Source: Leptotrichia wadei
Lineage (GTDB): Bacteria; Fusobacteriota; Fusobacteriia; Fusobacteriales; Leptotrichiaceae
NCBI RefSeq assembly: GCF_007990445.1
Contig: NZ_AP019841.1
Location: 930,001-994,000 of the forward strand
Direction of reading: 5' to 3'
DNA: 64,000 nt
The notes beneath the pieces are model-generated. The model was not told where the DNA came from and did no database searches. It saw only the letters and a program-made list of their open reading frames with translations. The position numbers and the translations under genes were made by a program. Below are positions 32,930-46,375 of the stretch, piece by piece (within the stretch, counting starts at the first letter, position 1; each line of letters opens with the position of its first letter).

Positions 32930-34144
32930 ATGGGAAAAAAAGCATTAGTAATTGGAGCTGGAGGAGTATCGAATGTAGTTTGCCATAAGTGTGCACAAAA
33001 TTCAGAAGTGTTTAGTTCAATTATGATAGCTAGCCGTACGAAGGCGAAATGTGATGAAATTAAGGAAAGAATTGAAAAAAGCAAATATGCAGGAAGAATT
33101 GAGATCCAGACTGCACAGGTGGATGCTAATAATGTACCTGAGTTGGTAGCGTTGATTAAAGAATACAAGCCTGACATTGTGATAAATGTGGCTTTGCCGT
33201 ATCAAGATTTGACAATTATGGATGCTTGTCTTGAAACTAAAACTGACTATTTGGATACAGCGAATTATGAGCCATTGGATACTGCTAAATTTGAGTATAA
33301 ATGGCAATGGGCTTATAAGGAAAAATTTGAAAAGGCTGGGATTACGGCTATTTTGGGAAGCGGATTTGATCCAGGTGTTACAGGAGTGTTTTCAGCATAT
33401 GCACAAAAGCATTATTTTGATGAAATAAATTATATTGATATTCTTGATGCAAATGCTGGAGATCACGGTTATCCATTTGCGACAAATTTTAATCCTGAAA
33501 TTAATATTAGGGAAGTTACTGCTAACGGAAGTTACTGGGAAGATGGAAAATGGGTGGAAACAGAACCTATGGAAATTAAAAGAGTATATAATTTTCCGCA
33601 AATTGGTGAAAAAGATATGTATTTATTGCACCATGAAGAACTAGAATCACTTGCTGTAAATATTAAAGGAATTAAAAGAATCAGATTTTTTATGACTTTT
33701 GGACAAAGTTACCTAACTCATTTGAAAGTACTTGAAAATGTTGGAATGACTTCGATTGAACCGATAGAATTTGAAGGAAAACAAATTGTGCCATTACAAT
33801 TTTTGACGGCAGTATTACCTGATCCAGCTTCGCTTGGGCCTAGAACAAAAGGTAAAACAAATATTGGAAATATTTTTAGAGGTAAAAAAGATGGAGTTGA
33901 AAAAACTTACTATGTTTATAATGTGTGCGACCATCAAGAATGTTATAAGGAAGTCAGTTCACAAGCAATTTCCTATACAACAGGCGTTCCAGCAATGATT
34001 GGGGCTGCAATGGTGCTTACTGGAGAATGGAAAAAACCAGGAGTGTTTAATGTAGAAGAAATGAATCCAGATCCATTTATGGATGCATTAAATAAATTTG
34101 GATTGCCTTGGGTTGAAGATTTTAATCCAGTATTAGTTGATTAA
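32930..34144 (+). CDS. Carboxynorspermidine synthase-like (saccharopine dehydrogenase family)
   Basis: A 404-residue NAD(P)-dependent enzyme with an N-terminal Rossmann fold (ALVIGAGGVSNVVCHKCAQN) and the family blocks VINVALPYQDLTIMDACL, GSGFDPGVTGVFSAYAQK and DANAGDHGYPFATNFNPE. These match the Lys1-type group that includes carboxynorspermidine synthase, which condenses aspartate semialdehyde with a diamine in an alternative polyamine route. The decarboxylase partner nspC is not in the window. Other saccharopine dehydrogenase-family activities remain possible. A strong GGAGGCGG ribosome site precedes the start. Confidence 0.82.
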   Translation: MGKKALVIGAGGVSNVVCHKCAQNSEVFSSIMIASRTKAKCDEIKERIEKSKYAGRIEIQTAQVDANNVPELVALIKEYKPDIVINVALPYQDLTIMDACLETKTDYLDTANYEPLDTAKFEYKWQWAYKEKFEKAGITAILGSGFDPGVTGVFSAYAQKHYFDEINYIDILDANAGDHGYPFATNFNPEINIREVTANGSYWEDGKWVETEPMEIKRVYNFPQIGEKDMYLLHHEELESLAVNIKGIKRIRFFMTFGQSYLTHLKVLENVGMTSIEPIEFEGKQIVPLQFLTAVLPDPASLGPRTKGKTNIGNIFRGKKDGVEKTYYVYNVCDHQECYKEVSSQAISYTTGVPAMIGAAMVLTGEWKKPGVFNVEEMNPDPFMDALNKFGLPWVEDFNPVLVD

Positions 34145-34259
34145 TTATTTTGAAAGAGTAAGTTATAGGTAAATTACTGTAAAAATAATAGTTGAAGAAA
34201 CATTATTGTAATATTTAATAATTATTTCTAAATTTTTTCTTTATTATTAAAAGAAAAAT

Positions 34260-34288
34260 TTGACTAATTTGATTATATGTGGTAACAT
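34260..34288 (+). promoter_or_regulatory. Candidate promoter of crr
   Basis: TTGACT (34260-34265), a 17-bp spacer and TAACAT (34283-34288), about 48 nt upstream of the crr start codon. Confidence 0.5.
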
Positions 34289-34335
34289 TAAAATGAGATA
34301 ATTAAAATATAAATAAATAAATTGGAGGAATTAAA

Positions 34336-34854
34336 ATGGGATTATTTGATTTATTCAAAAAAGGTAACAAAGGTGAAGAAGTTAAAAAAGAATTTGATGG
34401 GAAAGTAATAGCTCCTATTTCAGGAAATTTAATGCCTTTGTCAGAAGTGCCTGATGAAGTTTTTGCACAAAAAATGATAGGAGATGGAATTGCAATTGAA
34501 CCAACTGCATCAGGTGTGATGGTTGCACCAGCTTCTGGAAGAATAGAAAAAATATTTGATACTAACCATGCTTTTAGTATTGTAACACCTGCTGGAATTG
34601 AAATTTTCGTGCACCTTGGAATGGATACAGTTAAACTTGAAGGAAAAGGATTTGAAAGAATTGCAGAAGAAGGAGCAGTAGTAAAAGCAGGAGATCCAAT
34701 TGTTAAATATGATTACGACTTCTTAAAAGCAAATGCAAAATCAATTATTACACCAGTAATAATTTCAAATAGTGATGACTACAGTTCATTAAACCCAGTT
34801 GAATCTGGAAAAGCAGTAGCTGGAGAAACACTTGTATTGAATGTTGTAAAATAG
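34336..34854 (+). CDS. crr: PTS glucose-type IIA component
   Basis: A 172-residue stand-alone EIIA(Glc). The phosphorylated His is His93 in EIFVHLGMDTV, and the second active-site His is His78 in TNHAFSIVTP. The N-terminal amphipathic start MGLFDLFKK is the classical membrane-anchoring helix of Crr. It passes phosphate from HPr to glucose-family EIIBC components and may regulate other transporters. The gene is monocistronic with a strong ribosome site and a shared bidirectional terminator. Confidence 0.95.
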   Translation: MGLFDLFKKGNKGEEVKKEFDGKVIAPISGNLMPLSEVPDEVFAQKMIGDGIAIEPTASGVMVAPASGRIEKIFDTNHAFSIVTPAGIEIFVHLGMDTVKLEGKGFERIAEEGAVVKAGDPIVKYDYDFLKANAKSIITPVIISNSDDYSSLNPVESGKAVAGETLVLNVVK

Positions 34855-34872
34855 TTTTAATCTCAGATTAAT

Positions 34873-34924
34873 AAAAAATCTCTATTTAAGCAAGAAAATT
34901 CTTACTTATCTAGAGATTTTTTTT
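34873..34924. terminator. Bidirectional terminator between crr and the MATE gene
   Basis: AAAAAATCTCTA (34873-34884) pairs with TAGAGATTTTTT (34911-34922). It has A-rich and T-rich flanks on both sides, so it can end transcripts from both convergent genes. It overlaps the last codons of the MATE gene. Confidence 0.85.
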
Positions 34925-36311
34925 GTAAATTTATATAATTATTGCTTCCTTTATTTTTAAAATCTTTTGTCCAGTTGATACTTTTTACAGAAATAAAGAA
35001 GATTAATCCTGCCAGTGTATTTGAAAATAAATTTCCCCAGAAAATTGAGTAAAGTCCAAGATATTTTTGAGTTACCAGGATAAAAATATATCTTAATAAC
35101 CATATTCTTAAAATAGACATAACTAAAGGAACTTTTGTTCTTCCAAGTGCAATAAAAACTCCTTGTGAAATCATAAAAATGCTAAATCCAATTACCGAAT
35201 ATGTATAAATGTGCAAAGCCTTATCAGCGATTTCAATAACTTTTGGAACTTTTGTAAAAGTTAGCACAAGAGGCATTGAAATTGGTAAAATCAGGATAAT
35301 TGTTAAAATAGAAAGTATAGCTCCTGTTCTCCAGCCAATTTTAAACACATCTTTAGACTTCTTCACATTTCCAGTTCCCATATTTATGCTAATCATGGAA
35401 GAAACTGTAGTTCCGATTGAAGATGGCAAAATAAAGCAGATTGCATTGATGTTAGAGGCAATTCCTTGTGCATTTAAGGCGATTGCACCGAATTTTTCCA
35501 TTTCTTTGTTTATAAGGAAAAATCCAAGATACAGGAAGGCATAGTTTAACATTGATGGAAAGCCGATATTTAGAAGTCTTTTTATTATAGGCAGTTTCAT
35601 TGAATAATTTCTTAAATCCAGCTTGACATCTCCATTTTTTAAAAATAAATCGTAAAACATCCAGATTGTGATTGCAATATAGGAAAAAAGCGAAGCCATT
35701 ACTGCACCCACAATTCCCATTTTTAAGACATATAGAAAAATTGAATTAAAAATTATTTTTAAAATTAACAATAAAAAAATTCTAATAAATGTAACTTCAG
35801 GTCGACCAATCGCATTTTTCGATGAATTATAAATTGCAGCCAAAAATACGAAGGGCATTACAAGTGAATACAGGGCAATGTAAATATAGACATTGTCACG
35901 AATTTCAGCGGTTGTATATTTGGAAATTATAAAGGCTGAAAATATACAGACTGGAATTATAAAAAGTCCAATAACAAAGCTGAAAACAAAAATCTGCAGC
36001 ATCGTTTCCTTTACAGCCAGCATTCTTCCTTTTCCATAAAGCCTTCCAAGCATAACAAGAGTAGCCACTCCAAGCCCTTGCGACAATGCAATCATAATAT
36101 TCAGTACAGGCTGGCTAAATGTCACAGAACTAGCCACTTCAACGCTTGTAAGCCTATTTAGGAATAAGCTGTCAGAAAGCGGAATAAGTGCCTGAATAAT
36201 TCCAACCAGCAATGTTGGGATGGATAGGAAAAGCAGAGTATTTATAACTTTTCCGTTTAAGATCATTTCACGGCGTTCTTCATTAGATTGGGTTTTGAAT
36301 ATTGTTTTCAT
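34902..36311 (-). CDS. MATE family efflux transporter
   Basis: A 469-residue protein with about 12 hydrophobic helices. The first half begins FLSIPTLLVGIIQALIPLSD, and VTFSQPVLNIMIALSQGLGV and MISINMGTGN match conserved MATE segments. It probably exports cationic drugs or metabolites using a sodium or proton gradient. It is monocistronic on the minus strand, with the ribosome site AAAGGAG upstream. Confidence 0.88.
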   Translation of the reverse strand: MKTIFKTQSNEERREMILNGKVINTLLFLSIPTLLVGIIQALIPLSDSLFLNRLTSVEVASSVTFSQPVLNIMIALSQGLGVATLVMLGRLYGKGRMLAVKETMLQIFVFSFVIGLFIIPVCIFSAFIISKYTTAEIRDNVYIYIALYSLVMPFVFLAAIYNSSKNAIGRPEVTFIRIFLLLILKIIFNSIFLYVLKMGIVGAVMASLFSYIAITIWMFYDLFLKNGDVKLDLRNYSMKLPIIKRLLNIGFPSMLNYAFLYLGFFLINKEMEKFGAIALNAQGIASNINAICFILPSSIGTTVSSMISINMGTGNVKKSKDVFKIGWRTGAILSILTIILILPISMPLVLTFTKVPKVIEIADKALHIYTYSVIGFSIFMISQGVFIALGRTKVPLVMSILRIWLLRYIFILVTQKYLGLYSIFWGNLFSNTLAGLIFFISVKSINWTKDFKNKGSNNYINLQKKSLDK

Positions 36312-36518
36312 TTTCTTTTCTCCTTTCTTTAAAAATTTATCGTATCTTATTATTATAGCACTTTTTTGAGAAATTTTAAAATATTTTTTTTCTTATGATT
36401 TTCTTTGTTTAGTTTGGTTAGTAAAATTTGAATTCAAATATAAAAAAAATTTATTTCTTTGGGAATTTTCTGTTTCTATAACTTGGATTTTTTATATATA
36501 AAAATACTGTTTTTTATA

Positions 36519-36610
36519 ACGGTAAATAAAAATAAATAAAACTTGACATTTTTTAAAAAAGTGATATAATAATTACGTAAGATATTTACGGTAAATAAAA
36601 ATAAGTAAAA
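36519..36610 (+). promoter_or_regulatory. Promoter of the Lon-like gene with flanking direct repeats and palindrome
   Basis: TTGACA (36543-36548), a 16-bp spacer and TATAAT (36565-36570). Two 23-bp direct repeats beginning ACGGTAAATAAAAATAA flank it (36519-36541 and 36588-36610; one mismatch). The second repeat overlaps the perfect palindrome TATTTACGGTAAATA (36583-36597), which lies at about +7 to +20, a classic repressor position. A related element is found in the next unit's promoter (38486-38537). Confidence 0.7.
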
Positions 36611-36643
36611 AATTATAAAATAAAAAATTGAAGGAGTAGAATT

Positions 36644-38284
36644 ATGGAAAAAGATTTTTTAAAAATATCTGAAAGTGAATCAGATTTTGAAAAAAAAATT
36701 GAGTTAGTAACTGAAAATATGGAAGAATTAAACATAAGTAAAGTAAATAGAATAAAAATAAAAGAGTATAAAGATTACTATGATGAAAATATGGGTTCTA
36801 CAGATTCAGATTTTATAAAAACAAAAAAATGTCTTGAAATTATTAGTAAACTTGACTGGAAGAGAACTCTAAAAGAAGAAAAAATTAATATTTCTAAAAT
36901 GAGAGAGTTTTTAAATAAAAAACATTATGGAATGGAAAAAGTAAAGGAAACAATTTTAGAAAGTTTAGCATTAAGATATTATATGCGAAAGTCAGGGGAA
37001 AAAATACCTATGATAATATGCTTGGCAGGTTCGGCAGGGATAGGAAAAACTTCAATAGCAGAAGCAGTATCAGAAGGTCTGGGTAGAGAATTCGAAAAGA
37101 TCTCTATGAGTAGTGTGACGACAGTATTTGAATTAACAGGGCTTACAAAAGGTTATACATCAGCTGCTCCAGGAAGAATTATAAAAACTTTAGCAAAGTT
37201 TGAAAGTGATAATCCTGTAATTTTACTAGATGAAATTGATAAGATCAATAAAAAAAATTATGATGGAGATATTGAAGGAGTTTTGCTTGAAATACTAGAT
37301 CCAGATCAAAATAAACGATTTAGAGATGAATATTTAGAAATAGAGTATGATTTATCAAATATTATATTTTTAGCCACTGCTAATGATCTAAGCAAGATTT
37401 CAGAACCATTAAAAAGCAGAATGGAAATTATTCATCTAGAAAGTTATAGTTTGGAGCAAAAGGTTGAAATTGCAAAAAAATATATAATTCCAAGTATAAA
37501 TAAAAAAATTGCTTCCAAGTTAGTTTTTGAAGATGATATTTTGAGATACATAATTGAAAATTATACAAATGAAGATGGAGTCAGAAAATTAAAGACAATT
37601 TTGATGAAAATTTATGGAAAAATTGCTAAAGATGCATTGGAAAAGAAAGAAATTCCTCAAATTTCTCTAGAAAACATCGATTCATTTATTTGTGCAGATA
37701 AAATCCCTGATGTATCATTAAAGATAAATGCTGATGAAGAAAGTGTAGGAGAAGTGATGGGAATGGCAGTAACTTCTTTTGGAGGAAGAGCTATGCCAAT
37801 TCAGACAGTTATTGTACCAGGAAACGGTAAGATAAAAATTACAGGAAATCTTTCAGATATTATGAAAGAAGGAATAGATGTAGCTATAACATACATAAGA
37901 AGTAAAAGTAAAGAATTTAATTTGAAAAATCCTGATTTTTTTGAAAAAAATGACATACATATACATTTTAGCGAAAATTCTATTCCAAAAGATGGACCTT
38001 CTGCTGGAATCGCTATTGTAACATCAATACTTTCAGCATTGAATGAAAAAGAAATGAAGCATAATATGGCTTTTACTGGAGAAATCACAATTTTGGGAAA
38101 AGTGCTCCCTGTAGGAGGAGTGGCTAGAAAGATAGAAGGAGCCTATAAATCTGGAATAAAAAGATTTTTTATCCCGAAAGAAAATGAAAGTAGTATAAAT
38201 TTAATAAATAAAACAATATTAAATGATATAGAAATAGAACTTGTGGAAAATTATGAACAAATTTATTCAAAAATTTTTGCATAG
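36644..38284 (+). CDS. Lon-type ATP-dependent protease lacking the N-terminal domain
   Basis: A 546-residue S16 protease; full Lon has about 770-800 residues. The LON substrate-binding N domain is missing, and the protein begins with a charged helical segment that runs into the Lon helix LNKKHYGMEKVKETILESLA. The AAA+ module has Walker A (GSAGIGKTS), Walker B (VILLDEIDKI) and the TANDLSKISEPLKSRM sensor region. The protease domain has the Ser-Lys dyad: Ser in KDGPSAG and Lys in GGVARKIEGAYKSG. It should be an active ATPase and protease with altered substrate choice. Upstream ribosome site GAAGGAG. It precedes an HsdS-like/HsdM-like unit with a similar promoter. Confidence 0.88.
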   Translation: MEKDFLKISESESDFEKKIELVTENMEELNISKVNRIKIKEYKDYYDENMGSTDSDFIKTKKCLEIISKLDWKRTLKEEKINISKMREFLNKKHYGMEKVKETILESLALRYYMRKSGEKIPMIICLAGSAGIGKTSIAEAVSEGLGREFEKISMSSVTTVFELTGLTKGYTSAAPGRIIKTLAKFESDNPVILLDEIDKINKKNYDGDIEGVLLEILDPDQNKRFRDEYLEIEYDLSNIIFLATANDLSKISEPLKSRMEIIHLESYSLEQKVEIAKKYIIPSINKKIASKLVFEDDILRYIIENYTNEDGVRKLKTILMKIYGKIAKDALEKKEIPQISLENIDSFICADKIPDVSLKINADEESVGEVMGMAVTSFGGRAMPIQTVIVPGNGKIKITGNLSDIMKEGIDVAITYIRSKSKEFNLKNPDFFEKNDIHIHFSENSIPKDGPSAGIAIVTSILSALNEKEMKHNMAFTGEITILGKVLPVGGVARKIEGAYKSGIKRFFIPKENESSINLINKTILNDIEIELVENYEQIYSKIFA

Positions 38285-38304
38285 TATAAAAAAGACTGAT
38301 AAAT

Positions 38305-38390
38305 AATACTATTCCCTGTTTAAAAAGGAAAAGTTATATTTTAATTAATTTAAAATAAATATTGCTAAAATTATTATTTAAATGGGGTTT
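38305..38390. repeat. MITE-like repeat C, copy 1
   Basis: An 86-bp element that matches the reverse complement of 56079-56190. It starts AATACTATTCCCTGTTTAAA and ends TTTAAATGGGGTTT, so its ends are imperfect inverted repeats. It has no ORF and lies between the Lon-like gene and the next promoter. Confidence 0.65.
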
Positions 38391-38485
38391 AGTATAAAAT
38401 TAATATTTTTAAATTTTTTGTGTGTATTAAATTTAGGAAAATTAATGCAAATAACAGTAAAAAATTCAATTAAAAATAATAAAAA

Positions 38486-38537
38486 TTGACTTCTGTTAAA
38501 ATTAATAGTATAATAATTCTGTAATTTAAAACGGTAA
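38486..38537 (+). promoter_or_regulatory. Promoter of the HsdS/HsdM-like unit with ACGGTAA element
   Basis: TTGACT (38486-38491), a 17-bp spacer and TATAAT (38509-38514). Directly after it come AATT, GTAA and then ACGGTAA (38531-38537), in nearly the same order and spacing as downstream of the Lon-like promoter. The remaining leader to the start codon at 38708 is about 185 nt without a recognised structure. Confidence 0.6.
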
Positions 38538-38707
38538 TTGAATATAGATAAATTTTAGGAAAAACATGTAATAACTTAATAAAGAATAAAAAATATTCTA
38601 TACTTTTGGCAGTAAAATATACATAAATTGCAAATTATTGTAGTTAAAAACAATTTGAATGGTTGTTTAAATATGAATTAAATTATAGAAAAAAAGGATG
38701 TGAAATA

Positions 38708-38892
38708 ATGAAATTAGGAGAGAATGTAGATGTGGTTGCACCGTTAAATGTGAAAACAGCGGAGAAAGAAACAGGTTATTTACTGTTAAATCCTACTCTT
38801 ATAACTAACGGCAAGATAACAGGCTTTGAAAATGCAGAAGTGCCAGACAGGTATAAAAGTGGAGAAAATAAGATTGATGATAAATATTTTAT
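38708..38892 (+). CDS. HsdS-like specificity protein, exon 1 (5' part)
   Basis: Codons 1-61 plus two bases of codon 62 of an HsdS-like gene. The ATG at 38708 is chosen because of the AAAGGATGTGAAATA ribosome site; the upstream in-frame ATG at 38663 has none. The frame meets a TAA at 38897-38899 inside the inserted element, so unspliced RNA yields only a 63-residue peptide. Joining base 38892 to base 40801 continues the frame without a change. The product begins MKLGENVDVVAPLNV and resembles the start of a type I specificity target-recognition domain. Confidence 0.75.
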
Positions 38893-39330
38893 TAAATAAA
38901 GCAAGAACACTCGCGACTTTAGTCGTGAGATGAATTGTACGAAAATTTTAGTAAGCATATAGGGAAACTTGTATGTAGACACGGAGCAAAACCGTGCAAC
39001 AAAGAAACTGAACTGCTGGGAACTCTTAAAGCTAGTATAACCACAACATAATACCTTCGTTCAAATATGGTATAAGTGTGAAGGTGGCGAAAGCAGAAAA
39101 AATATACTAGATGGTGCAAGGTTAAATCCTAAACATTATGATAATAGACAATCAGCAGCTAATCCTGAAAAGGAAAGTTCAACGACTATCCCTCGTGAGG
39201 GGAGTACAATACAAGCGATAGGTATTGGAAGTGGTTTCGCCTAAGTCTTTGAAACAGGATATGGATAAGATATAGTCTGTGCTTGTTAGAAATAACAAGA
39301 AGTTCATAAGAGAACTGCATAAATGGTAGC
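38893..39330 (+). ncRNA. Group I intron catalytic core (IStron 5' part)
   Basis: Group I core elements are visible. A joining segment ATCAGCAGCTAATCC leads to GTTCAACGACTATCC (P7 5' strand at 39182-39188), followed by the P7.1-like hairpin CCCTCGTGAGGGG. AAGATATAGTCTG (39267-39279) supplies the P7 3' strand. A GAAA-capped P9-like hairpin follows (CTTGTTA/TAACAAG, 39282-39299). The pattern is that of phage td/IA2-type introns. The 5' splice site would be after the U of TTTAT, matched to a GTAAG guide at 38951-38955 (U-G pair at the splice site); the 3' splice site would be after G40800. The intron therefore includes tnpB, and the precise P1 pairing is an inference. Confidence 0.8.
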
Positions 39331-39476
39331 GTATTTATGTGAACAACACTTCCCACTGTTGTGGGGTTTTAAAAACTTTAAAAATATTTAAAAATAAATA
39401 AAAAATATTACTTTTTTGACAGATAAAATGTAGAATACATGGTATAATATCTCTGATGAAAAGGAGGTGATTATAT

Positions 39477-40721
39477 ATGTATTTAACATTAAAACAACAA
39501 GTAAAACATCTTAGTAAAAAAGAGTTTAGGAATTTAAAATATTTATCTCATATAGCCAAGAACTTAACTAATGAAGCTATATATAATGTTAGACAACACT
39601 ATTTTCAAAATAAAAAGTATTTAAGTTATAACGAAAACTATAAAATGCTTAAAAATAGTGAGAACTATAAGAAGTTAAATTCTAATATGGCTCAACAAAT
39701 TCTAAAAGAAGTAGATGGAAGTTTCAAATCATTTTTTGGACTTTTAAAACTTGCTAAAAATGATCAATATAAGGGTAAAATAAAATTACCTAAATATCTT
39801 GCTAAAGATGGATTTACAACTCTTGTTATAGGTTTTGTTAGATTAAAAGACGATATGCTGATGGTTCCTTATTCAAATTCATTTAGAAAGACACATAAGG
39901 AAATCGCAATAAAACTACCACCAGTATTAAAAGACAAGAAGATAAAAGAGATTAGAATAATACCAAAACAACATTCTAGGTACTTTGAAATTCAATATAC
40001 TTATGAGGCAGAAGAAGTTCAAAGGGAATTAAATAAAGAAAATGCACTAGGAATTGATTTAGGTATAAATAATCTTTGTACTTGCGTTATAAATACTGGA
40101 GCATCATTCATAATAGATGGTAGAAAATTAAAATCAATAAATCAATACTATAACAAGATAAATGCAAAATTACAAAGTATAAAAGATAAGCAAAAGATTA
40201 AGCGGACAACATTAAGACAAAAGCGAATAGCTAGAAAGAGAAATAATCGTATAAATGATTATCTTTCAAAAGCAGCAAGAATAATTGTAAATTATTGCCT
40301 TAATAATGATATAGGAAAACTAGTTCTAGGATATAATGAAGATTTTCAAAGGAATTCAAATATTGGAAGTATAAATAATCAAAACTTTGTAAATATACCA
40401 TATGGAAAATTAAGAGATAAATTAATATATCTATGTAAACTATATGGAATAGAATTTAAACTGCAAGAAGAAAGTTATACATCAAAAGCAAGTTTCTTTG
40501 ATGGAGATGAAATCCCAATATATGATAAAGAAAATCAAAAAGAATATATATTCCGTGGAAAAAGGATAAAAAGAGGATTATATCAAACAGGTGCAGGTAA
40601 ACTCATAAATGCAGATTGTAATGGAGCATTAAATATATTAAGGAAAAGTAAAGTTGTGGATTTAAGTATCCTATACAATAGGGGTGAGCTGAACACACCT
40701 AAAAGAATAAGGGTAGTGTAA
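39477..40721 (+). CDS. tnpB: TnpB RNA-guided nuclease of the IStron
   Basis: A 414-residue IS605 OrfB/TnpB. The RuvC triad is present: Asp194 (LGIDLGINNLC), Glu288 (VLGYNEDFQRN) and Asp380 (LINADCNGALNIL). The usual zinc-ribbon CxxC pairs between the last two are absent; the segment reads ESYTSKASFFDGDEIP and then KEYIFRGKRIKRG. This belongs to the zinc-ribbon-less TnpB subgroup, which still keeps an intact catalytic site. TnpB cleaves DNA guided by an omega-RNA next to a TAM, here probably TTTAT. AAGGAGGTG precedes the ATG. It is on the same strand as the host gene and intron. Confidence 0.9.
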   Translation: MYLTLKQQVKHLSKKEFRNLKYLSHIAKNLTNEAIYNVRQHYFQNKKYLSYNENYKMLKNSENYKKLNSNMAQQILKEVDGSFKSFFGLLKLAKNDQYKGKIKLPKYLAKDGFTTLVIGFVRLKDDMLMVPYSNSFRKTHKEIAIKLPPVLKDKKIKEIRIIPKQHSRYFEIQYTYEAEEVQRELNKENALGIDLGINNLCTCVINTGASFIIDGRKLKSINQYYNKINAKLQSIKDKQKIKRTTLRQKRIARKRNNRINDYLSKAARIIVNYCLNNDIGKLVLGYNEDFQRNSNIGSINNQNFVNIPYGKLRDKLIYLCKLYGIEFKLQEESYTSKASFFDGDEIPIYDKENQKEYIFRGKRIKRGLYQTGAGKLINADCNGALNILRKSKVVDLSILYNRGELNTPKRIRVV

Positions 40722-40800
40722 AGCTATCAAACTTCTTAGAAAATTTTTGAATATTTTTAAAGATTTTAGAACCCTGCGACTTTAGTCGTGGGAGGTTCAG

Positions 40801-41203
40801 TAAAAAAGGGGATGTATTATTTCAAGCAAAAGGAAGTAAGATAGAAGTTGTGTATGTAGAAAAAGATTATGAAAATGTGTTGCCATCAACTCTTTATTTT
40901 ATTTTGAGAACAAATGAAAAAATAAATCCAGAATACCTTTGCTGGTTATTAAAAACAGAATTGCTTTTATTATATTTTGAAAAAAAGTTTAGAAGAATAA
41001 GTATTGTTAGAGCCATAAATAAAAGCTATCTTGTTGAATTAGATATTGAATTGCCAGAAAGGGAAGAACAAGATAGGATGGTTGAAATAATAAAAAGTTT
41101 TGAAGAAGAAGAAGATATGATGTTGCAATATTTAAAAACTAAAAAACAATATATTGAAGAAAGTATAATTTCTAAAAATGGGGTGAAAATAAATGAAGAG
41201 TGA
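40801..41203 (+). CDS. HsdS-like specificity protein, exon 2 (3' part)
   Basis: Continues exon 1 in the same frame: ATT spans the junction, then codons for KKGDVLFQAKGSK. It has the HsdS pattern KGDVLFQAKGS ... INPEYLCWLLKT ... ISIVRAINKSYLVELDIELP and the closing EQDRMVEIIKSFEEE helix. The spliced gene encodes 195 residues, about half of a normal HsdS, meaning one target-recognition domain and one helix. Half-size S subunits act as dimers. The last 11 nt overlap the start of the HsdM-like gene, so translation is coupled. Confidence 0.75.
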
Positions 41204-42344
41204 TTTGTTTGATATTTTTTTTGAAAAAATAGGACGTTTTCGAAGAGGACGTTTTAGAGAGAGTGATAATGTAATAGAAATTCTTAAAGCTTGTCTTTTT
41301 TCATATGTAGTTTGTATAAGTAAAGTGGTTTTTGAAGAGATAGAAAATTTAAGAGATGATAATTATTTATTTTTAGAATATTTAAAACAAAATGGATTTG
41401 AGTATGATTTGGAAAAAAGTTATTCAGAAAATATGAAAATATTATCCGATAAGATAGAATTATTTAACGGATCTTATAATTTTATATTTCAAACTAAAGA
41501 ATCTGAAGAGATTTTAAATAGTTTGAGGAATATGGAATTAGATTTAAAGCTTGATATTTTAAGAGGGAAATATGTAAAAATTACACAAAATTTTATAAGT
41601 AAAGTGATAAATTTACCTATTATACGGGAAGAAACAGGTGATTTTTTATTAGAAATATTTAATGAAAAAAATAATAAAATTTTATATAATGTTGAGTTTT
41701 TTTTATTTAATTACTTTGGGGATGTGGTAATTCACGAAAATGAAAAAATAGAAATTTCAAAAATACTTTTTTCAATGACTAATTCTAATAATAATAATAA
41801 AATAGTAATGAGTTTAAGATCTGTAGGACTTCAAACAAGGGAGATGATTTTAAAATTATTTAATGAAAATGATAAGATAATAGTGAATAGAAACTCTTTT
41901 AGTTATTTACCTTTAGAAGTAAGAGAAGAAGCGGTTAGAAATAATTGGATAGAAACGATAATAGCTATACCTTGTGGCGACTGGATACCTTCTTTGGAAA
42001 CGGTTATATTAAATAAAAAAAGAGAATCAAAAGAAGATAATATTTTGTTTATTAGAACGGAAACTTTTTTTGAAAGAAATAATAAAATAAAACCAGAAAA
42101 TTATGAGAGATTACTAGAAATATTTAAAGAAAGGAAAGAAATTAATGGAATCTCAAAAGTTGTACCGAATGAAAAGATATTACTTGAAAAATGTAGGTTA
42201 TCTATTTTAAGTTATGTTTATAAAACAAAAGAAAAGGTAGATTTAAAAGAATTGGAATATAATAAAAAGGAACTTTGCAATAAAATGGAGAGAAAAAGGA
42301 AAGAGTGTGACAGTTTAATAGAAGAATATTTGTTAAAAAAATAA
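41193..42344 (+). CDS. HsdM-like protein without methyltransferase motifs
   Basis: A 383-residue protein whose layout follows the type I methylase HsdM but is shorter (500 or more is usual). The C-terminal half has the HsdM pattern VREEAVRNNWIETIIAIP, then SLETVILNKKR, LFIRTETFF and ISKVVPNEKILLEKC. The AdoMet motif (GxG) and the catalytic NPPF/Y motif are both absent; I find no NPP anywhere. It probably keeps the fold and the contact to the S-like protein without methylating DNA. It overlaps the S-like gene by 11 nt. No HsdR is present. Fast divergence or a transcription/DNA-binding role are alternatives. Confidence 0.65.
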   Translation: MKSDLFDIFFEKIGRFRRGRFRESDNVIEILKACLFSYVVCISKVVFEEIENLRDDNYLFLEYLKQNGFEYDLEKSYSENMKILSDKIELFNGSYNFIFQTKESEEILNSLRNMELDLKLDILRGKYVKITQNFISKVINLPIIREETGDFLLEIFNEKNNKILYNVEFFLFNYFGDVVIHENEKIEISKILFSMTNSNNNNKIVMSLRSVGLQTREMILKLFNENDKIIVNRNSFSYLPLEVREEAVRNNWIETIIAIPCGDWIPSLETVILNKKRESKEDNILFIRTETFFERNNKIKPENYERLLEIFKERKEINGISKVVPNEKILLEKCRLSILSYVYKTKEKVDLKELEYNKKELCNKMERKRKECDSLIEEYLLKK

Positions 42345-42386
42345 TAAAAACATAAAATTGTATATTAAAATTCTGGGAGGTGTTTT

Positions 42387-42446
42387 ACGGATAAACTTAA
42401 AATAGATGTATTATCAAGTGGAGTTCAACAAAAAGATCTAAAATAA
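42387..42446 (+). other. Short coding-like remnant after the HsdM-like gene
   Basis: A GGGAGG ribosome site (42375-42380) precedes a frame that reads TDKLKIDVLSSGVQQKDLK then TAA, but the first codon is ACG, not ATG. It may be the beginning of a truncated gene with a mutated start, or chance. Unassigned. Confidence 0.25.
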
Positions 42447-42468
42447 TATAAAAAATTTTTTAAAGGTG

Positions 42469-42497
42469 TTTACAAATCAAGAAAAATTTAGTATAAT
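42469..42497 (+). promoter_or_regulatory. Promoter of the lysine-riboswitch operon
   Basis: TTTACA (42469-42474), a 17-bp spacer and TATAAT (42492-42497), immediately before the riboswitch. Confidence 0.75.
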
Positions 42498-42505
42498 GTA
42501 AAACA

Positions 42506-42690
42506 AGATAGAGGTGCGGTTTTTAAGAGTAGATTTATGGAGAAGGTCAATTCGATGAAATAACTTGAAAGGGGAAATCGCCGAAGTACAAAGAGTGACG
42601 AACTTTGCTACTGGGTCTATGGAGAATATCTATAGGACTGTCATTATAATGTGTAATGGTGAGCTGTCAGATATATAAATGTGATTTTGA
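42506..42690 (+). ncRNA. Lysine riboswitch (L box)
   Basis: L-box signatures occur in order: GATAGAGGTGCGG, AAGAGTAGA, GGGGAAATCGCCGAAG, CTGGGTC, GACTGTCA and TGAGCTGTCAGATA. The closing P1 strands and the five-helix layout fit. Binding of lysine favours the downstream terminator and so represses lysA and lysC. The surrounding gap (42345-42794) also holds the promoter and the terminator. Confidence 0.92.
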
Positions 42691-42712
42691 TTTTAGATTA
42701 TATAATTTTATA

Positions 42713-42740
42713 TGCTGATGTTCGTTGTCAGCATTTTTTA
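42713..42740 (+). terminator. Riboswitch-controlled terminator
   Basis: TGCTGA (42713-42718) pairs with TCAGCA (42728-42733), followed by TTTTTTATTT, at the expected place between the lysine aptamer and lysA. Confidence 0.85.
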
Positions 42741-42794
42741 TTTGTAGAAAAAATTTACAGAAGAAATTTTTAGGAAAGGAAAATTTGTGAAAAT

Positions 42795-44105
42795 ATGAAA
42801 TTATTTGGAACGGCAAAAATTAATGAAAAAGGGAATTTATCAATAGGAGGAGTTGATACGATAGAGTTGGCAAAAGAGTTTAAAACGCCACTTTATGTAA
42901 TGGATCAGGAATTGATTGAAACGACTATTGATAAAATGAAAGAGGCTTTTCAGTCTACAAGATTTAAAACGAGAATAGCTTATGCAGGGAAAGCATTTTT
43001 AACAACTGGGATGATTAAATTGGTTGAATCTAAAGGATTGGATTTAGATGTTGTGTCTGGTGGAGAATTGTATACAGCACATAAAGCAGGATTTCCGATG
43101 AAAAGAGTGCATTTGCATGGGAATAATAAATTGGTGAATGAGATTGAAATGGCTGTTGAATATGGGATTGATACGATTGTTGTAGATAATGAAGATGAAA
43201 TTGCTAAGATTGAAAAAGTTTGTAAGGAAAAAGGTAAGAAACAAGCGGTTTTAGTGAGAATTGATCCAGGAATTGAGGCACATACGCATCACTATATAAA
43301 AACTTCAGGACTTACATCAAAATTTGGGATTTCACTTTTCCAAGAAAATTTGATTGATATTGTAAAAAGATTGAATGATAGTCCATATATTGAATTTAAA
43401 GGGTTCCATACACATATTGGTTCGCAAATATTCCAATCTGCATTCTTTATTTTTGCGTTAGATGAAATTTTCAAATATTTGGATAGATTGAAAAAAGAAT
43501 TAGGAATTGTAGTTCACACAGTAAATATGGGTGGAGGATTTGGAGTTTATTACAAAAATGGAGATGATCCTAAACCAATAGAAGAAGTGCTTAGCGAAAT
43601 TATAACTTATACTGAAGCAATGGAAATTAAATATCAAATTGGATTTAAAGAACTTTGTATTGAGCCAGGAAGAAGTATTGTCGGAAATGCGGGAACTACT
43701 TTGTATGAAGTTGGTGGGATTAAAGAAACTGTTGGTGGAAAAACTTATGTATTTATTGATGGAGGAATGTCAGATAATATAAGAACAGCACTTTATCAAG
43801 CTGAATATGAGGCTGGAGTTGTTAATAAAATGGAAGATACTGACACAAGAGATGTTACATTAGCTGGGAAATTGTGTGAATCAGGAGATATTATTATTCA
43901 AAATGGTAAATTGCCAAAATCGACTAAAGTTGGGGATATAGTTGCAGTTGGTACGACAGGAGCTTATTGTTATACAATGTCAAGCCACTACAATAGAATG
44001 GTTACGCCAGGAGTTGTATTTGTAAAAGATGGTAAAGCAAAAGTTGCTGTTAGAAGAGAATCTTATGAAGATTTATTGAGAAATGATGAAATTTTTGAAT
44101 TATAA
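42795..44105 (+). CDS. lysA: Diaminopimelate decarboxylase
   Basis: A 436-residue PLP enzyme that makes lysine from meso-diaminopimelate. The PLP-lysine block is IAYAGKAFLT, followed by the glycine-rich cofactor site VNMGGGFGVYY and the substrate region CEPGRSIVG-like (IEPGRSIVGNAG). The C-terminal domain contains LCESGDII and the terminal Tyr loop GAYCYTMSSHYNRM. Length is normal. It is first in the lysine-riboswitch operon, with an AGGAAAGGAAA ribosome site. Confidence 0.95.
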   Translation: MKLFGTAKINEKGNLSIGGVDTIELAKEFKTPLYVMDQELIETTIDKMKEAFQSTRFKTRIAYAGKAFLTTGMIKLVESKGLDLDVVSGGELYTAHKAGFPMKRVHLHGNNKLVNEIEMAVEYGIDTIVVDNEDEIAKIEKVCKEKGKKQAVLVRIDPGIEAHTHHYIKTSGLTSKFGISLFQENLIDIVKRLNDSPYIEFKGFHTHIGSQIFQSAFFIFALDEIFKYLDRLKKELGIVVHTVNMGGGFGVYYKNGDDPKPIEEVLSEIITYTEAMEIKYQIGFKELCIEPGRSIVGNAGTTLYEVGGIKETVGGKTYVFIDGGMSDNIRTALYQAEYEAGVVNKMEDTDTRDVTLAGKLCESGDIIIQNGKLPKSTKVGDIVAVGTTGAYCYTMSSHYNRMVTPGVVFVKDGKAKVAVRRESYEDLLRNDEIFEL

Positions 44106-44181
44106 TTTTGTTTCTTTTTGCAATGAAAATTTGTAATGATAAAAAGAAAATACAGATTGAAAGGATAGAGGTGCATTTATT

Positions 44182-45399
44182 GTGATTATTGTACATAAAT
44201 ATGGTGGAACTTCGGTTGCCACAACTGAAAAAATTATGAATATTGCTAAATATTTAGGTAGCGTAAAGGATTCAGGAAATGATGTAGTTGTAGTAGTTTC
44301 GGCTATGGGGAAAACAACTGATGCGTTGATTAAATTGGCTCATGAAATTACTGAAAATCCAGATTCTAGGGAAATGGATAGATTAATGTCGACTGGAGAG
44401 CAACAAACAATTTCGCTTTTAAGTATTGCGTTGAAAACATTGGGATATGAAGCGATTTCATTAACAGGGGCTCAAGCGGGGATAAAAACGAGTGGGCATT
44501 ATATGAAAAATAAAATAGATGATATAAATGGTGATGTTATAAAAGGCCACTTGAATGAAGGGAAAATCGTTGTTGTAGCTGGGTTCCAAGGAGTTAATAA
44601 AGATGGAGATGTAACTACTTTGGGGCGTGGAGGTTCTGATACTTCTGCAGTTGCGCTTGCGGCAGCTTTGGGAGGAAAATGTGAGATTTATACGGATGTT
44701 GACGGAATTTATTCAATTGATCCGAGAGTGTATAGCGATGCGAAAAAATTGCCATATATTTCTTATGATGAAATGATGGAATTGGCTTATTTAGGGGCTG
44801 GAGTAATGGAGCCTAGAGCCGTTGAACTTGGTGGAAAATATGGAGTAGAAATCTATGTTGGGAAATCACTTGGTGAAAAAAATGGAACGATTATAACTTC
44901 AATTCAAAAAATAAAGGAGATTAAAGAAATGGAAGAAAGAGTAATAACTGGAGTGTCGATAAATGAAAATGTATTAATGGTAAACGTGGAAGAAATTCCT
45001 ACAAATGCACAAAATGTATATGAGATTTTTGAAAAAGCTGAAGCAAATGGAATAAATATTGATATGATAAGTCAAAATGATGTAACTAGCCATCACGGAA
45101 GTTTTGCCTTTACTTGTCCAAAAACTGATATAGCAGCACTTGAAAAAATTGGAAAAGAAATAGAAGCTGAATTTCCGAAAACATCATTTATAATAAACCA
45201 ATATGTTACAAAAGTTTCAATTGTAGGAATTGGATTAATTAGTAACGTTGGTGTAGCTGCAAAAATGTTTAAAATTTTATCTGAAAATGATATAAGTTTT
45301 CACCAAATTTCGACTTCAGAAATTAGTATTTCATTGGTTGTGGATGAAGTTATGGGTAAAAAAGTTGCAGAATTATTTGCTAGAGAATTTGATATATAA
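44182..45399 (+). CDS. lysC: Aspartate kinase
   Basis: A 405-residue aspartokinase for the first step of lysine/threonine/methionine synthesis. The signature KYGGTSVATTEKI is at the N-terminus, and FQGVNKDGDVTTLGRGGSDTSA forms the kinase core. Two ACT domains follow (starting near residues 255 and 345), the usual site of lysine feedback. It starts at GTG; the preceding GATAGAGGTG is a fair ribosome site. It is 76 nt downstream of lysA under the same riboswitch. Confidence 0.94.
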   Translation: MIIVHKYGGTSVATTEKIMNIAKYLGSVKDSGNDVVVVVSAMGKTTDALIKLAHEITENPDSREMDRLMSTGEQQTISLLSIALKTLGYEAISLTGAQAGIKTSGHYMKNKIDDINGDVIKGHLNEGKIVVVAGFQGVNKDGDVTTLGRGGSDTSAVALAAALGGKCEIYTDVDGIYSIDPRVYSDAKKLPYISYDEMMELAYLGAGVMEPRAVELGGKYGVEIYVGKSLGEKNGTIITSIQKIKEIKEMEERVITGVSINENVLMVNVEEIPTNAQNVYEIFEKAEANGINIDMISQNDVTSHHGSFAFTCPKTDIAALEKIGKEIEAEFPKTSFIINQYVTKVSIVGIGLISNVGVAAKMFKILSENDISFHQISTSEISISLVVDEVMGKKVAELFAREFDI

Positions 45400-45434
45400 A
45401 AATTATTGGACTTGTTCAGAAACTAAGTGTATTT

Positions 45435-45520
45435 AGAATTTGGTAAGATAAATATTCTGAAGCTAGGATTCTTGAACTCTTGTGAAAAAAATTTAGATAC
45501 CGAGCAGGTCTACTGAAATA
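45435..45520. repeat. Dispersed intergenic repeat A, copy 2
   Basis: Contains AATATTCTGAAG and CAGGTCTACTGAAATAT blocks shared with 11286-11376 and 54076-54170. It lies between lysC and the SDR gene. Confidence 0.65.
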
Positions 45521-45562
45521 TCTTTTTACAGGATTGGGTTTAATATAAAAAAGGGAATTTTT

Positions 45563-46375
45563 ATGGAAACGGTTTTAATAACAGGAGCAAGCAGCGGAAT
45601 TGGCTATGAACTTGCTAAAATTTATGCAAAAAACGGGCATGATCTGGTTGTTGTGGCACGAAATAAAGATAAGTTGGAAATTTTAAAAAAAGAGATTTTT
45701 GAGGAAATTTCTAAAAATATCAAGATAACTGTAATTGAAAATGATCTGTCGTTGGAAAATGCGGCTGAAAGGCTTTATAATCAAGTGAAATCTAAAAAAT
45801 TGAAAATAAATGTACTCGTGAATAATGCTGGAGTTGGGATCTATGGGAAATTTTCTGAATTTGATGAAGAAACGATGAAAAGAAATGATGCAATGATAAA
45901 CTTGAATATAAAGGCAGTTGTAGAATTGACAAGATTGTTTTTAAATGATATGCTAAAGGATGGAAATGGCGGGATATTAAATGTGTCTTCAATTGCAGCT
46001 TTTATGCCAGGGCCTTTAATGAGTACGTATTATGCGAGTAAAGCCTTTGTGCAGTCGTTTACGGAAGCAGTTAGGGAAGAAGTGAAAAATGATGTTCGTG
46101 GGAAAAATATTAGAATATCGGCACTTTGTCCTGGGCCGACAGATACTGGCTTTGAGAAGAGCAGCAATTTGGAGGAAAGTTCGTTGTTTGAGAGATTGAA
46201 AGTTATGACTGCGAAGAAAGTGGCTGAAATTGGATATAAAGATTTTCAGAAGGGAAAAGCGGTTATAATTCCTGGAATCTTCAATAGGATTGCGGTTTTT
46301 GGAACTAGATTCCTATCGAGAAAATTTGTTGTAAAAACGGCTGGAAAGTTGCAGGAAAGGAAAAATAAAAATTAA
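45563..46375 (+). CDS. Short-chain dehydrogenase/reductase
   Basis: A 270-residue classical SDR: cofactor motif ITGASSGIGYEL, the NNAG loop (VNNAGVGIYG), and the catalytic Ser (NVSSIAAF) and Tyr-Lys pair (TYYASKAF). The substrate is unknown; it resembles the YqjQ/DltE-like group. It lies 12 nt upstream of dapF, so it may be cotranscribed with the lysine genes, but no DAP-pathway step needs such an enzyme. Confidence 0.88.
   Translation: METVLITGASSGIGYELAKIYAKNGHDLVVVARNKDKLEILKKEIFEEISKNIKITVIENDLSLENAAERLYNQVKSKKLKINVLVNNAGVGIYGKFSEFDEETMKRNDAMINLNIKAVVELTRLFLNDMLKDGNGGILNVSSIAAFMPGPLMSTYYASKAFVQSFTEAVREEVKNDVRGKNIRISALCPGPTDTGFEKSSNLEESSLFERLKVMTAKKVAEIGYKDFQKGKAVIIPGIFNRIAVFGTRFLSRKFVVKTAGKLQERKNKN

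What the first reader, a model, noticed from the sequence alone, without database searches (positions are those of the whole stretch)
38708..41203. IStron inside an HsdS-like gene; exact excision restores the reading frame
A TnpB element with a group I intron core sits after TTTAT in an HsdS-like gene. Removing exactly 38893-40800 joins AT to T, giving ATT AAA AAA GGG GAT, and yields a continuous 195-residue protein. A 5' splice site after U of TTTAT and a 3' splice site after G40800 fit group I rules (U-G pair, terminal G). Group I IStrons are known (CdISt1 and TnpB IStrons), but insertion in a defence-like specificity subunit with self-splicing rescue would be unusual: host-gene output would depend on the splicing/omega-RNA balance.
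Basis: partly seen in the sequence, partly recalled or inferred. Interest (0 to 1): 0.85.

Follow-up and report, generated by a model that had tools for sequence, protein, structure and literature searches.

The report
Self-splicing jumping gene inside hsdS-like gene
A mobile DNA element carrying its own self-removing RNA intron sits inside a small restriction-specificity-like gene; it belongs to a known kind (IStrons), and its sister copies, one of them inside the cell's replicative helicase gene, suggest that such insertions are tolerated because they can be spliced out of the RNA.

Summary
Window 38893-40800 is a 1908-bp group A IStron (group I ribozyme plus tnpB) inserted after TTTAT in an hsdS-like gene. 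Exact removal gives a 195-codon frame that aligns without gaps to 11 uninterrupted homologues in 8 related genomes. Rfam's group I model does not score, but it is insensitive; a hand-drawn core is supported by covariation, and ribozyme guide and target change together. The own genome holds at least 15 copies. Of 61 copies examined in seven genomes, 49 lie sense inside an ORF, none antisense, 12 neither; of nine ribozyme-less 45-nt remnants, one does. One copy splits the only strong dnaB. Splicing is very likely in general and likely here; no RNA was seen. Frame restoration alone proves nothing, since this transposon class inserts without target duplication. IStrons in Fusobacteria and intragenic insertion are in print; the splicing/guide-RNA conflict too (citation seen, content recalled). 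The host gene is half-size HsdS-like beside a methylase fragment, not a recognisable restriction system.

The parts
38708..38892 (+). 5' exon of the hsdS-like gene, ending TTTAT at 38888-38892 (target/TAM and 5' side of P1)
38893..40800 (+). IStron (group A type): ribozyme, tnpB, right end; terminal G at 40800
   Evidence: 15 copies with the same ends in the own genome
38910..38929 (+). left-end hairpin CTCGCGAC-TTTA-GTCGTGAG
   Evidence: read from the sequence
38946..38950 (+). possible P10 half, UUUUA, pairing UAAAA of the 3' exon (5 of 5 pairs here; not above chance over the copies)
38951..38955 (+). internal guide sequence GUAAG, pairs with UUUAU (P1, U.G at the splice site)
39004..39009 (+). 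P3 5' strand (partner 39233-39238)
   Evidence: 4 of 6 pairs changed on both sides, 100% paired
39013..39018 (+). P4 5' strand (partner 39153-39158)
   Evidence: nearly invariant; its 5' strand was part of the selection pattern
39184..39189 (+). P7 5' strand (partner 39272-39277), the guanosine-site helix
   Evidence: invariant; its 3' strand was part of the selection pattern
39246..39259 (+). P8 (39246-39249 with 39256-39259)
   Evidence: 4 of 4 pairs changed on both sides, 90.6% of cells paired
39477..40721 (+). tnpB, 414 aa; candidate RuvC-type acids D194, E288, D380 present (motif assignment recalled)
40772..40792 (+). right-end hairpin; also the expected 3' part of the omega-RNA scaffold (inferred)
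40801..41203 (+). 3' exon of the hsdS-like gene; its first ~16 nt would be the omega-RNA guide (inferred)
41193..42344 (+). partner gene, C-terminal part of an N6-methylase fold, no NPP[YFW] motif; a homologue is adjacent in 11 of 11 homologous loci

Best explanation
A TnpB-type group A IStron jumped, without target duplication, into the TTTAT of an hsdS-like gene. In RNA, the group I ribozyme folds, pairs its guide GUAAG with UUUAU, and joins the two exons exactly at 38892/40801, so that the 195-residue protein is still made. Transcripts that stay unspliced would keep the junction of right end and 3' exon, and could serve as TnpB guide RNA that cuts empty alleles. Shown here: element, ends, core structure, intact frame, empty sites, and a census in which ribozyme-bearing copies inside genes are sense. 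Inferred: the splicing event at this copy, guide-RNA production, and TnpB cutting.
For: Frame and gap-free alignment to 11 intact homologues. Core helices with covariation above slid controls: 95.0% of cells paired against 30.7-43.5%. Target/guide covariation. 49 of 61 copies sense inside an ORF, 0 antisense, 12 other, against target-site frequencies in the window of 31% sense, 44% antisense, 25% intergenic. Ribozyme-less 45-nt remnants: 1 of 9 in a sense ORF by the same rule, and that one 7 codons from its end, Fisher p = 1e-4. The only strong DnaB_C gene of the genome is split by copy L005. The single guanylate kinase hit of G010 directly follows copy L091, which splits an AT|G start codon. 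The joined frame has dN/dS near 0.17 against the closest ortholog. tnpB reaches 405 aa or more in 51 of 61 copies.
Against: No RNA data. Rfam finds no group I intron in this copy (E <= 10), in six loci holding sister copies or introns (E <= 5) or in four further loci, one of them repeated. One of five covariation measures, the number of further pair types, is not clear of the shuffles (50 against 46.4; 40 of 500 as high). P10 pairing is not above chance over the copies. The dN/dS covers mostly time before the insertion. A weak third DnaB_C hit at 1305796 (32.6 bits, over the cut-off of 27; probably RadA, recalled) exists.
Confidence: 0.87

Rival explanations
1. This particular copy no longer splices and the hsdS-like gene is simply knocked out; the intact frame only reflects a recent insertion without target duplication.
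For: Frame restoration is automatic for this transposon class (PMC4227781, section 15). In Fusobacterium nucleatum only one of five IStrons was predicted fully functional (PMC1924603, passages). The gene is dispensable in the genus: 4 of 13 genomes have no match.
Against: All ten drawn helices pair fully in the window copy, guide and target match, and tnpB is full length.
Confidence: 0.15
2. The lack of antisense insertions comes from replication-coupled single-strand transposition (lagging-strand template) and from genes lying mostly on the leading strand, not from splicing.
For: 57 of 61 copies are oriented with the replication fork as inferred from dnaA, terminus assumed opposite. IS200/IS605 strand preference is established knowledge (recalled).
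Against: All three intragenic copies that oppose the fork are still sense, though one of them (L124) lies near the assumed terminus. About 73% of ORF bases in the window lie on the leading strand, so 49 of 49 sense would be about 3e-7 under this rule alone. Ribozyme-less remnants mostly lie outside genes (8 of 9). dnaB is split.
Confidence: 0.08
3. One reading: the IStron works as a regulatory switch of a defence specificity subunit through the splicing/omega-RNA balance.
For: The geometry forces a choice, since splicing separates scaffold from guide (inference). The conflict is published for Clostridium (cited; content recalled).
Against: No sign that this site is special: at least 15 copies in genes of many kinds, no complete restriction system recognised at the locus, and the site is empty in the 8 other genomes with the gene.
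Confidence: 0.05

Closest known systems
Group A IStrons of Fusobacteria: LbISt1 (Leptotrichia buccalis, 1760 bp, 1 copy), FnISt1 (Tourasse 2014, PMC4227781; abstract, sections 14 and 15, part 1 of the discussion and searched passages seen)
   Same: Group I intron (class IA2 according to that paper), TnpB, truncated or no ORF A in the element, insertion after a T-rich pentanucleotide, end TCAG, mostly intragenic
   Different: About 1900 bp here; at least 15 copies here and 28 left-part hits in a relative, where the survey lists one copy for L. buccalis
tnpB elements on C. difficile and E. faecium plasmids (CdISt1-like and EfISt1-like; the names are my inference)
   Same: Intron part 73% identical over 15-456 (C. 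difficile) and 105-454 (E. faecium)
   Different: The E. faecium copy carries an annotated tnpA and scores 66.5 bits to Rfam RF00028, this one nothing
TnpB/omega-RNA IS200/IS605 elements
   Same: TnpB with OrfB_IS605 and Cas12f1-like_TNB domains, end hairpins, TAM-like 5' flank
   Different: A ribozyme is built into the left part, and the element ends are also the proposed splice sites

Membership tests
Group A IStron | Group I core (P3, P4, P6, P7, P8) upstream of the IS ORF | tested here: met
   similarity to tnpB elements of C. difficile and E. faecium
Group A IStron | Inserted after TTGAT, ATTAT or TTTAT; ends TCAG; no target duplication | tested here: met
   (empty queA sites)
Group A IStron | IS200/IS605-type ORF B (TnpB) | tested here: met
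   OrfB_IS605 105.7 bits
Group A IStron | Self-splicing RNA | not testable with these tools
   Indirect only:
Group I intron (Rfam RF00028) | Reaches the family model's gathering score | tested here: not met
   but at E <= 1 nothing is reported for the T4 td stretch or the C. difficile element, and T4 nrdB reaches 35.7 of 50 bits, so the test is insensitive
[quoted passage not shown]
   (by sequence; splicing itself not seen)
Type I restriction-modification system | HsdS paired with an HsdM carrying the NPPY-type motif | tested here: not met
   Partner is only a C-terminal N6_Mtase part without NPP[YFW]
Type I restriction-modification system | HsdR nearby | not tested
   Not searched by family; by eye no ORF (34000-46000) looks like HsdR

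The most novel reading that the evidence does not exclude
In this genus the IStron works as an RNA-guided homing intron. The 3' exon serves as guide, so a copy arriving from another species can re-enter exactly the same TTTAT of the homologous gene, while the ribozyme hides it in RNA. The queA site AGATTTTAT|AG is occupied in G010 and G007 but empty in G006 and G000, which are their nearest relatives among the four genomes compared. The two occupying elements are not sisters in the element tree and are more alike (95%) than the upstream flanks (81%). The nagB site is shared by three genomes with non-sister elements.
Probability: 0.3. Interest if true: 0.7.

Novelty: new member of a known kind. 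Interest (0 to 1): 0.45.

Why it matters
It is a natural experiment on ribozyme-transposon symbiosis: dozens of similar insertions in one genus, split start codons, an interrupted dnaB, and matched ribozyme-less remnants that mostly stay out of genes. It makes splicing in vivo, the match of target site to ribozyme guide, and RNA-guided homing directly testable. For annotation it warns that genes split this way in these bacteria are probably not pseudogenes, and that Rfam can overlook the introns.

Tried and rejected
Rfam at low stringency: no group I hit here; controls show low sensitivity, so the core was drawn by hand. RNAfold minimum: z = -4.28, but the fold cannot show the P3/P7 knot; not used. 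First core alignment A1 mixed strands because minus-strand loci are not turned; discarded and redone. First helix offsets for P6, P7 and P8 were wrong and were corrected before counting. P10 as a general feature: rejected, mean 2.68 of 5 pairs against 2.62 at control offsets. Frame restoration as evidence of splicing: rejected as automatic. Genome-contig scan for the hsdS-like protein: nothing (a second scan was allowed and not used). A covariance model was not built: alignment too long. My first count of the 45-nt remnants, none of nine in ORFs, was wrong by the census rule: on rechecking, one (L163) clips the end of a 127-codon frame; the Fisher p rose from 4.5e-6 to 1e-4. The full copies counted are not fully independent (nagB and queA sites recur).

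Full report
Observation. The window lies at G000:C1:930001-994000 of a 2.40-Mb genome. No call names the organism; Leptotrichia is my inference. The element at 38893-40800 follows TTTAT and ends in GGTTCAG. A search of the own genome gave 61 matches (40 of 197 first-look candidates scored), among them 14 over the whole length at 88-100% identity and one internally deleted copy. These 15 share the same ends. Removal joins the flanks into a 195-codon frame.

Host gene. In the genus, 9 of 13 genomes match the joined protein at E <= 0.001. One is the own genome, in two pieces. Eight others hold it uninterrupted at 72-79% identity, three of them with a second paralog at 69-70%; four (G006, G007, G008, G012) have no match. 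The alignment with these 11 intact homologues has no gap at the junction. At DNA level the site reads TTTAT in 3 of 11, TTTGT in 7 and TTCAT in 1; the closest, L031, reads TTTAT then TCAAAAGGG. dN/dS against L031 is about 0.17 for the whole frame (dN 0.119, dS 0.691), 0.23 and 0.15 for the two halves. The protein is half the size of usual HsdS (the Specificity_I profiles listed run to 388-690 positions) and carries a Methylase_S domain (33.9 and 41.8 bits in two orthologs). Its neighbour at 41193-42344 matches only the C-terminal part of N6_Mtase, has no NPP[YFW], and has an adjacent homologue in 11 of 11 loci. I did not search for HsdR.

Ribozyme. Rfam gives no group I hit in 36000-44000 (E <= 1), in the element (E <= 10), in six loci holding copies or introns (E <= 5), or in four loci, L018 again among them. 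Controls at E <= 1: an E. faecium tnpB element scores 66.5 bits and the T4 nrdB intron 35.7 (cut-off 50); nothing is reported for the T4 stretch with td and I-TevI or for a C. difficile tnpB element. The negative is therefore weak. By DNA similarity the intron part is 73% identical to those two plasmid elements (30 records matched, 3 over at least 80% of the query). From 64 distinct cores, 24 diverse ones were aligned. Cores were picked by a pattern that contains the P4 5' strand and the P7 3' strand, so the constancy of those strands is partly by construction. Ten hand-drawn helices, P2 to P8 with P7 as a knot, pair fully in the window copy, from which they were drawn. Over the 24 sequences, 95.0% of cells pair, against 30.7-43.5% when slid, and 24 of 54 pairs change on both sides (shuffled mean 14.7); P3 has 4 of 6 such pairs, P8 4 of 4, P7 none. 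P2.1 (80.0%) and P6 (79.2%) are less regular, and the count of further pair types is not clear of the shuffles (40 of 500).

Target and guide. Copies after TTTAT carry GUAAG as guide sequence, giving UUUAU/GUAAG with U.G at the splice site. A divergent set after TTGAT carries GUCAG or, in one case, GUCAA. A pattern limited to guides GUAAG or GUCAG and to TTTAT, TTGAT or ATTAT contexts counted 56 TTTAT/GUAAG and 4 TTGAT/GUCAG, with no mixed case; by eye all six divergent cores examined follow TTGAT. Transposon target and ribozyme guide thus change together. P10 is perfect in the window copy, but over 60 copies it is no better than control offsets.

Census. I fetched 46 further copies: the 28 hits over the whole 484-base left part listed for G010, and 18 (17 such, one over 1-414) from G006, G007, G008, G009 and G012. 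Left out were the partial intron hits (such as six 118-456 hits in G010) and the copies of a second genus, G078. Three of the 61 are internally deleted (L015, L111, L117). With fixed thresholds, 49 of 61 lie sense inside a frame of 100 codons or more through the junction, 0 are antisense (the longer frame decides), 12 are neither. By eye, of those 12: four are sense in shorter frames or in the last exon of a cobK-like gene (L008, L014, L085, L094), five sit at the start codon or leader of a sense gene (L011, L012, L091, L103, L105; L012 and L091 split AT|G), and three are in no evident gene (L089, L090, L117). Target sites in the window are 252 sense, 351 antisense and 201 intergenic, so the bias is not one of target supply. 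Replication is a confounder: 57 of 61 run with the fork as placed by dnaA with the terminus assumed opposite. The three intragenic exceptions are sense; one, L124, lies near the assumed terminus. With about 73% of ORF bases on the leading strand, fork direction alone would give 49 of 49 sense with a chance near 3e-7. Phases were 27, 15 and 7 for phases 2, 0 and 1; target supply in window ORFs was 78, 111 and 56.

Controls within the genomes. Nine 45-nt elements made of fused left and right ends, without ribozyme, were found in 3 of 13 genomes (6, 1 and 2), each after TTTAT. By the census rule one of nine (L163) lies in a sense frame, clipping its last codons, and eight lie in none; against 49 of 61 this gives Fisher p = 1e-4. 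Two of the nine (L164, L168) look orthologous by their flanks. DnaB_C has two strong pieces in the own genome on either side of copy L005 (profile 1-133 and 134-255), and one weak hit in a 457-aa frame, probably RadA (name recalled). The replicative helicase gene is thus interrupted within its ATPase domain. In G010 the single guanylate kinase hit directly follows copy L091.

Homing-like recurrence. queA (name recalled) is hit at three different sites in four genomes. The site shared by G010 and G007 is empty in G006 and G000, their nearest relatives among these four by flank identity (G010-G006 91%; G007-G000 90-97%; other pairs 76-88%). Elements there are 95.4% identical, the upstream 250 bp 81%. 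In the element tree (support values not read) these two are not sisters, nor are the three at the shared nagB site. Independent entry at the same site, helped by TnpB guided by the 3' exon, fits; vertical descent with gene conversion between copies, or loss, is not excluded.

Literature. Tourasse 2014 (PMC4227781; abstract, sections 14 and 15, part 1 of the discussion and searched passages) already reports IStrons in Fusobacteria including L. buccalis, TTTAT among the targets, TCAG ends, 118 of 202 sites intragenic and 64 of those in-frame. Its main text does not contain 'antisense', 'orientation' or 'same strand'. PMC1924603 (passages) reports five IStrons in F. nucleatum. The splicing/guide-RNA conflict is Zedaveinyte 2024, seen only as a reference in PMC12558985 (passages); its content is recalled. 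A search for 'Leptotrichia' with 'group I intron' listed four papers, of which by title and abstract only the 2014 survey is on the subject (listing).

Verdict. A real and very likely functional IStron in a dispensable half-size hsdS-like gene: a new copy of a known kind. The genus-wide census is the more interesting part.

Noticed in passing
L018 and L014 (G000:C1 about 225.0-228.6 kb): One gene (cobK-like by its peptides, recalled) is interrupted by three group I insertions: two IS-less introns after TTGAT and one TTTAT IStron. In G007 (L070) the first two are present and the third site is empty.
   Followed up: partly
L161-L169: Nine 45-nt remnants made of fused left and right ends, each after TTTAT, eight outside evident frames; they look like solo scars of IStrons formed by deletion between the two similar end hairpins.
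   Followed up: partly
L106, L127, L006, L120; L013, L116, L128: queA carries IStrons at three sites in four genomes, one site occupied in two distant species and empty in their nearer relatives; the nagB site is shared by three species with non-sister elements.
   Followed up: partly
window 41193-42344: Conserved partner of the hsdS-like gene: C-terminal part of an N6-methylase with no NPP[YFW]; a homologue is adjacent in 11 of 11 loci; function unclear.
   Followed up: partly
window 36644-38284: Lon-like protease upstream of the hsdS-like gene; its PADLOC match to BrxL (64.4 bits) covers only the protease domain.
   Followed up: no
window 42501-42674: Lysine riboswitch (113 bits) upstream of genes that look like lysA and aspartokinase (names recalled).
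   Followed up: no
L016, L017, L021, L022: Shortened copies keeping element ends and part of the tnpB end but no ribozyme core (matches to 2-87, 529-565 and 1718-1908).
   Followed up: no
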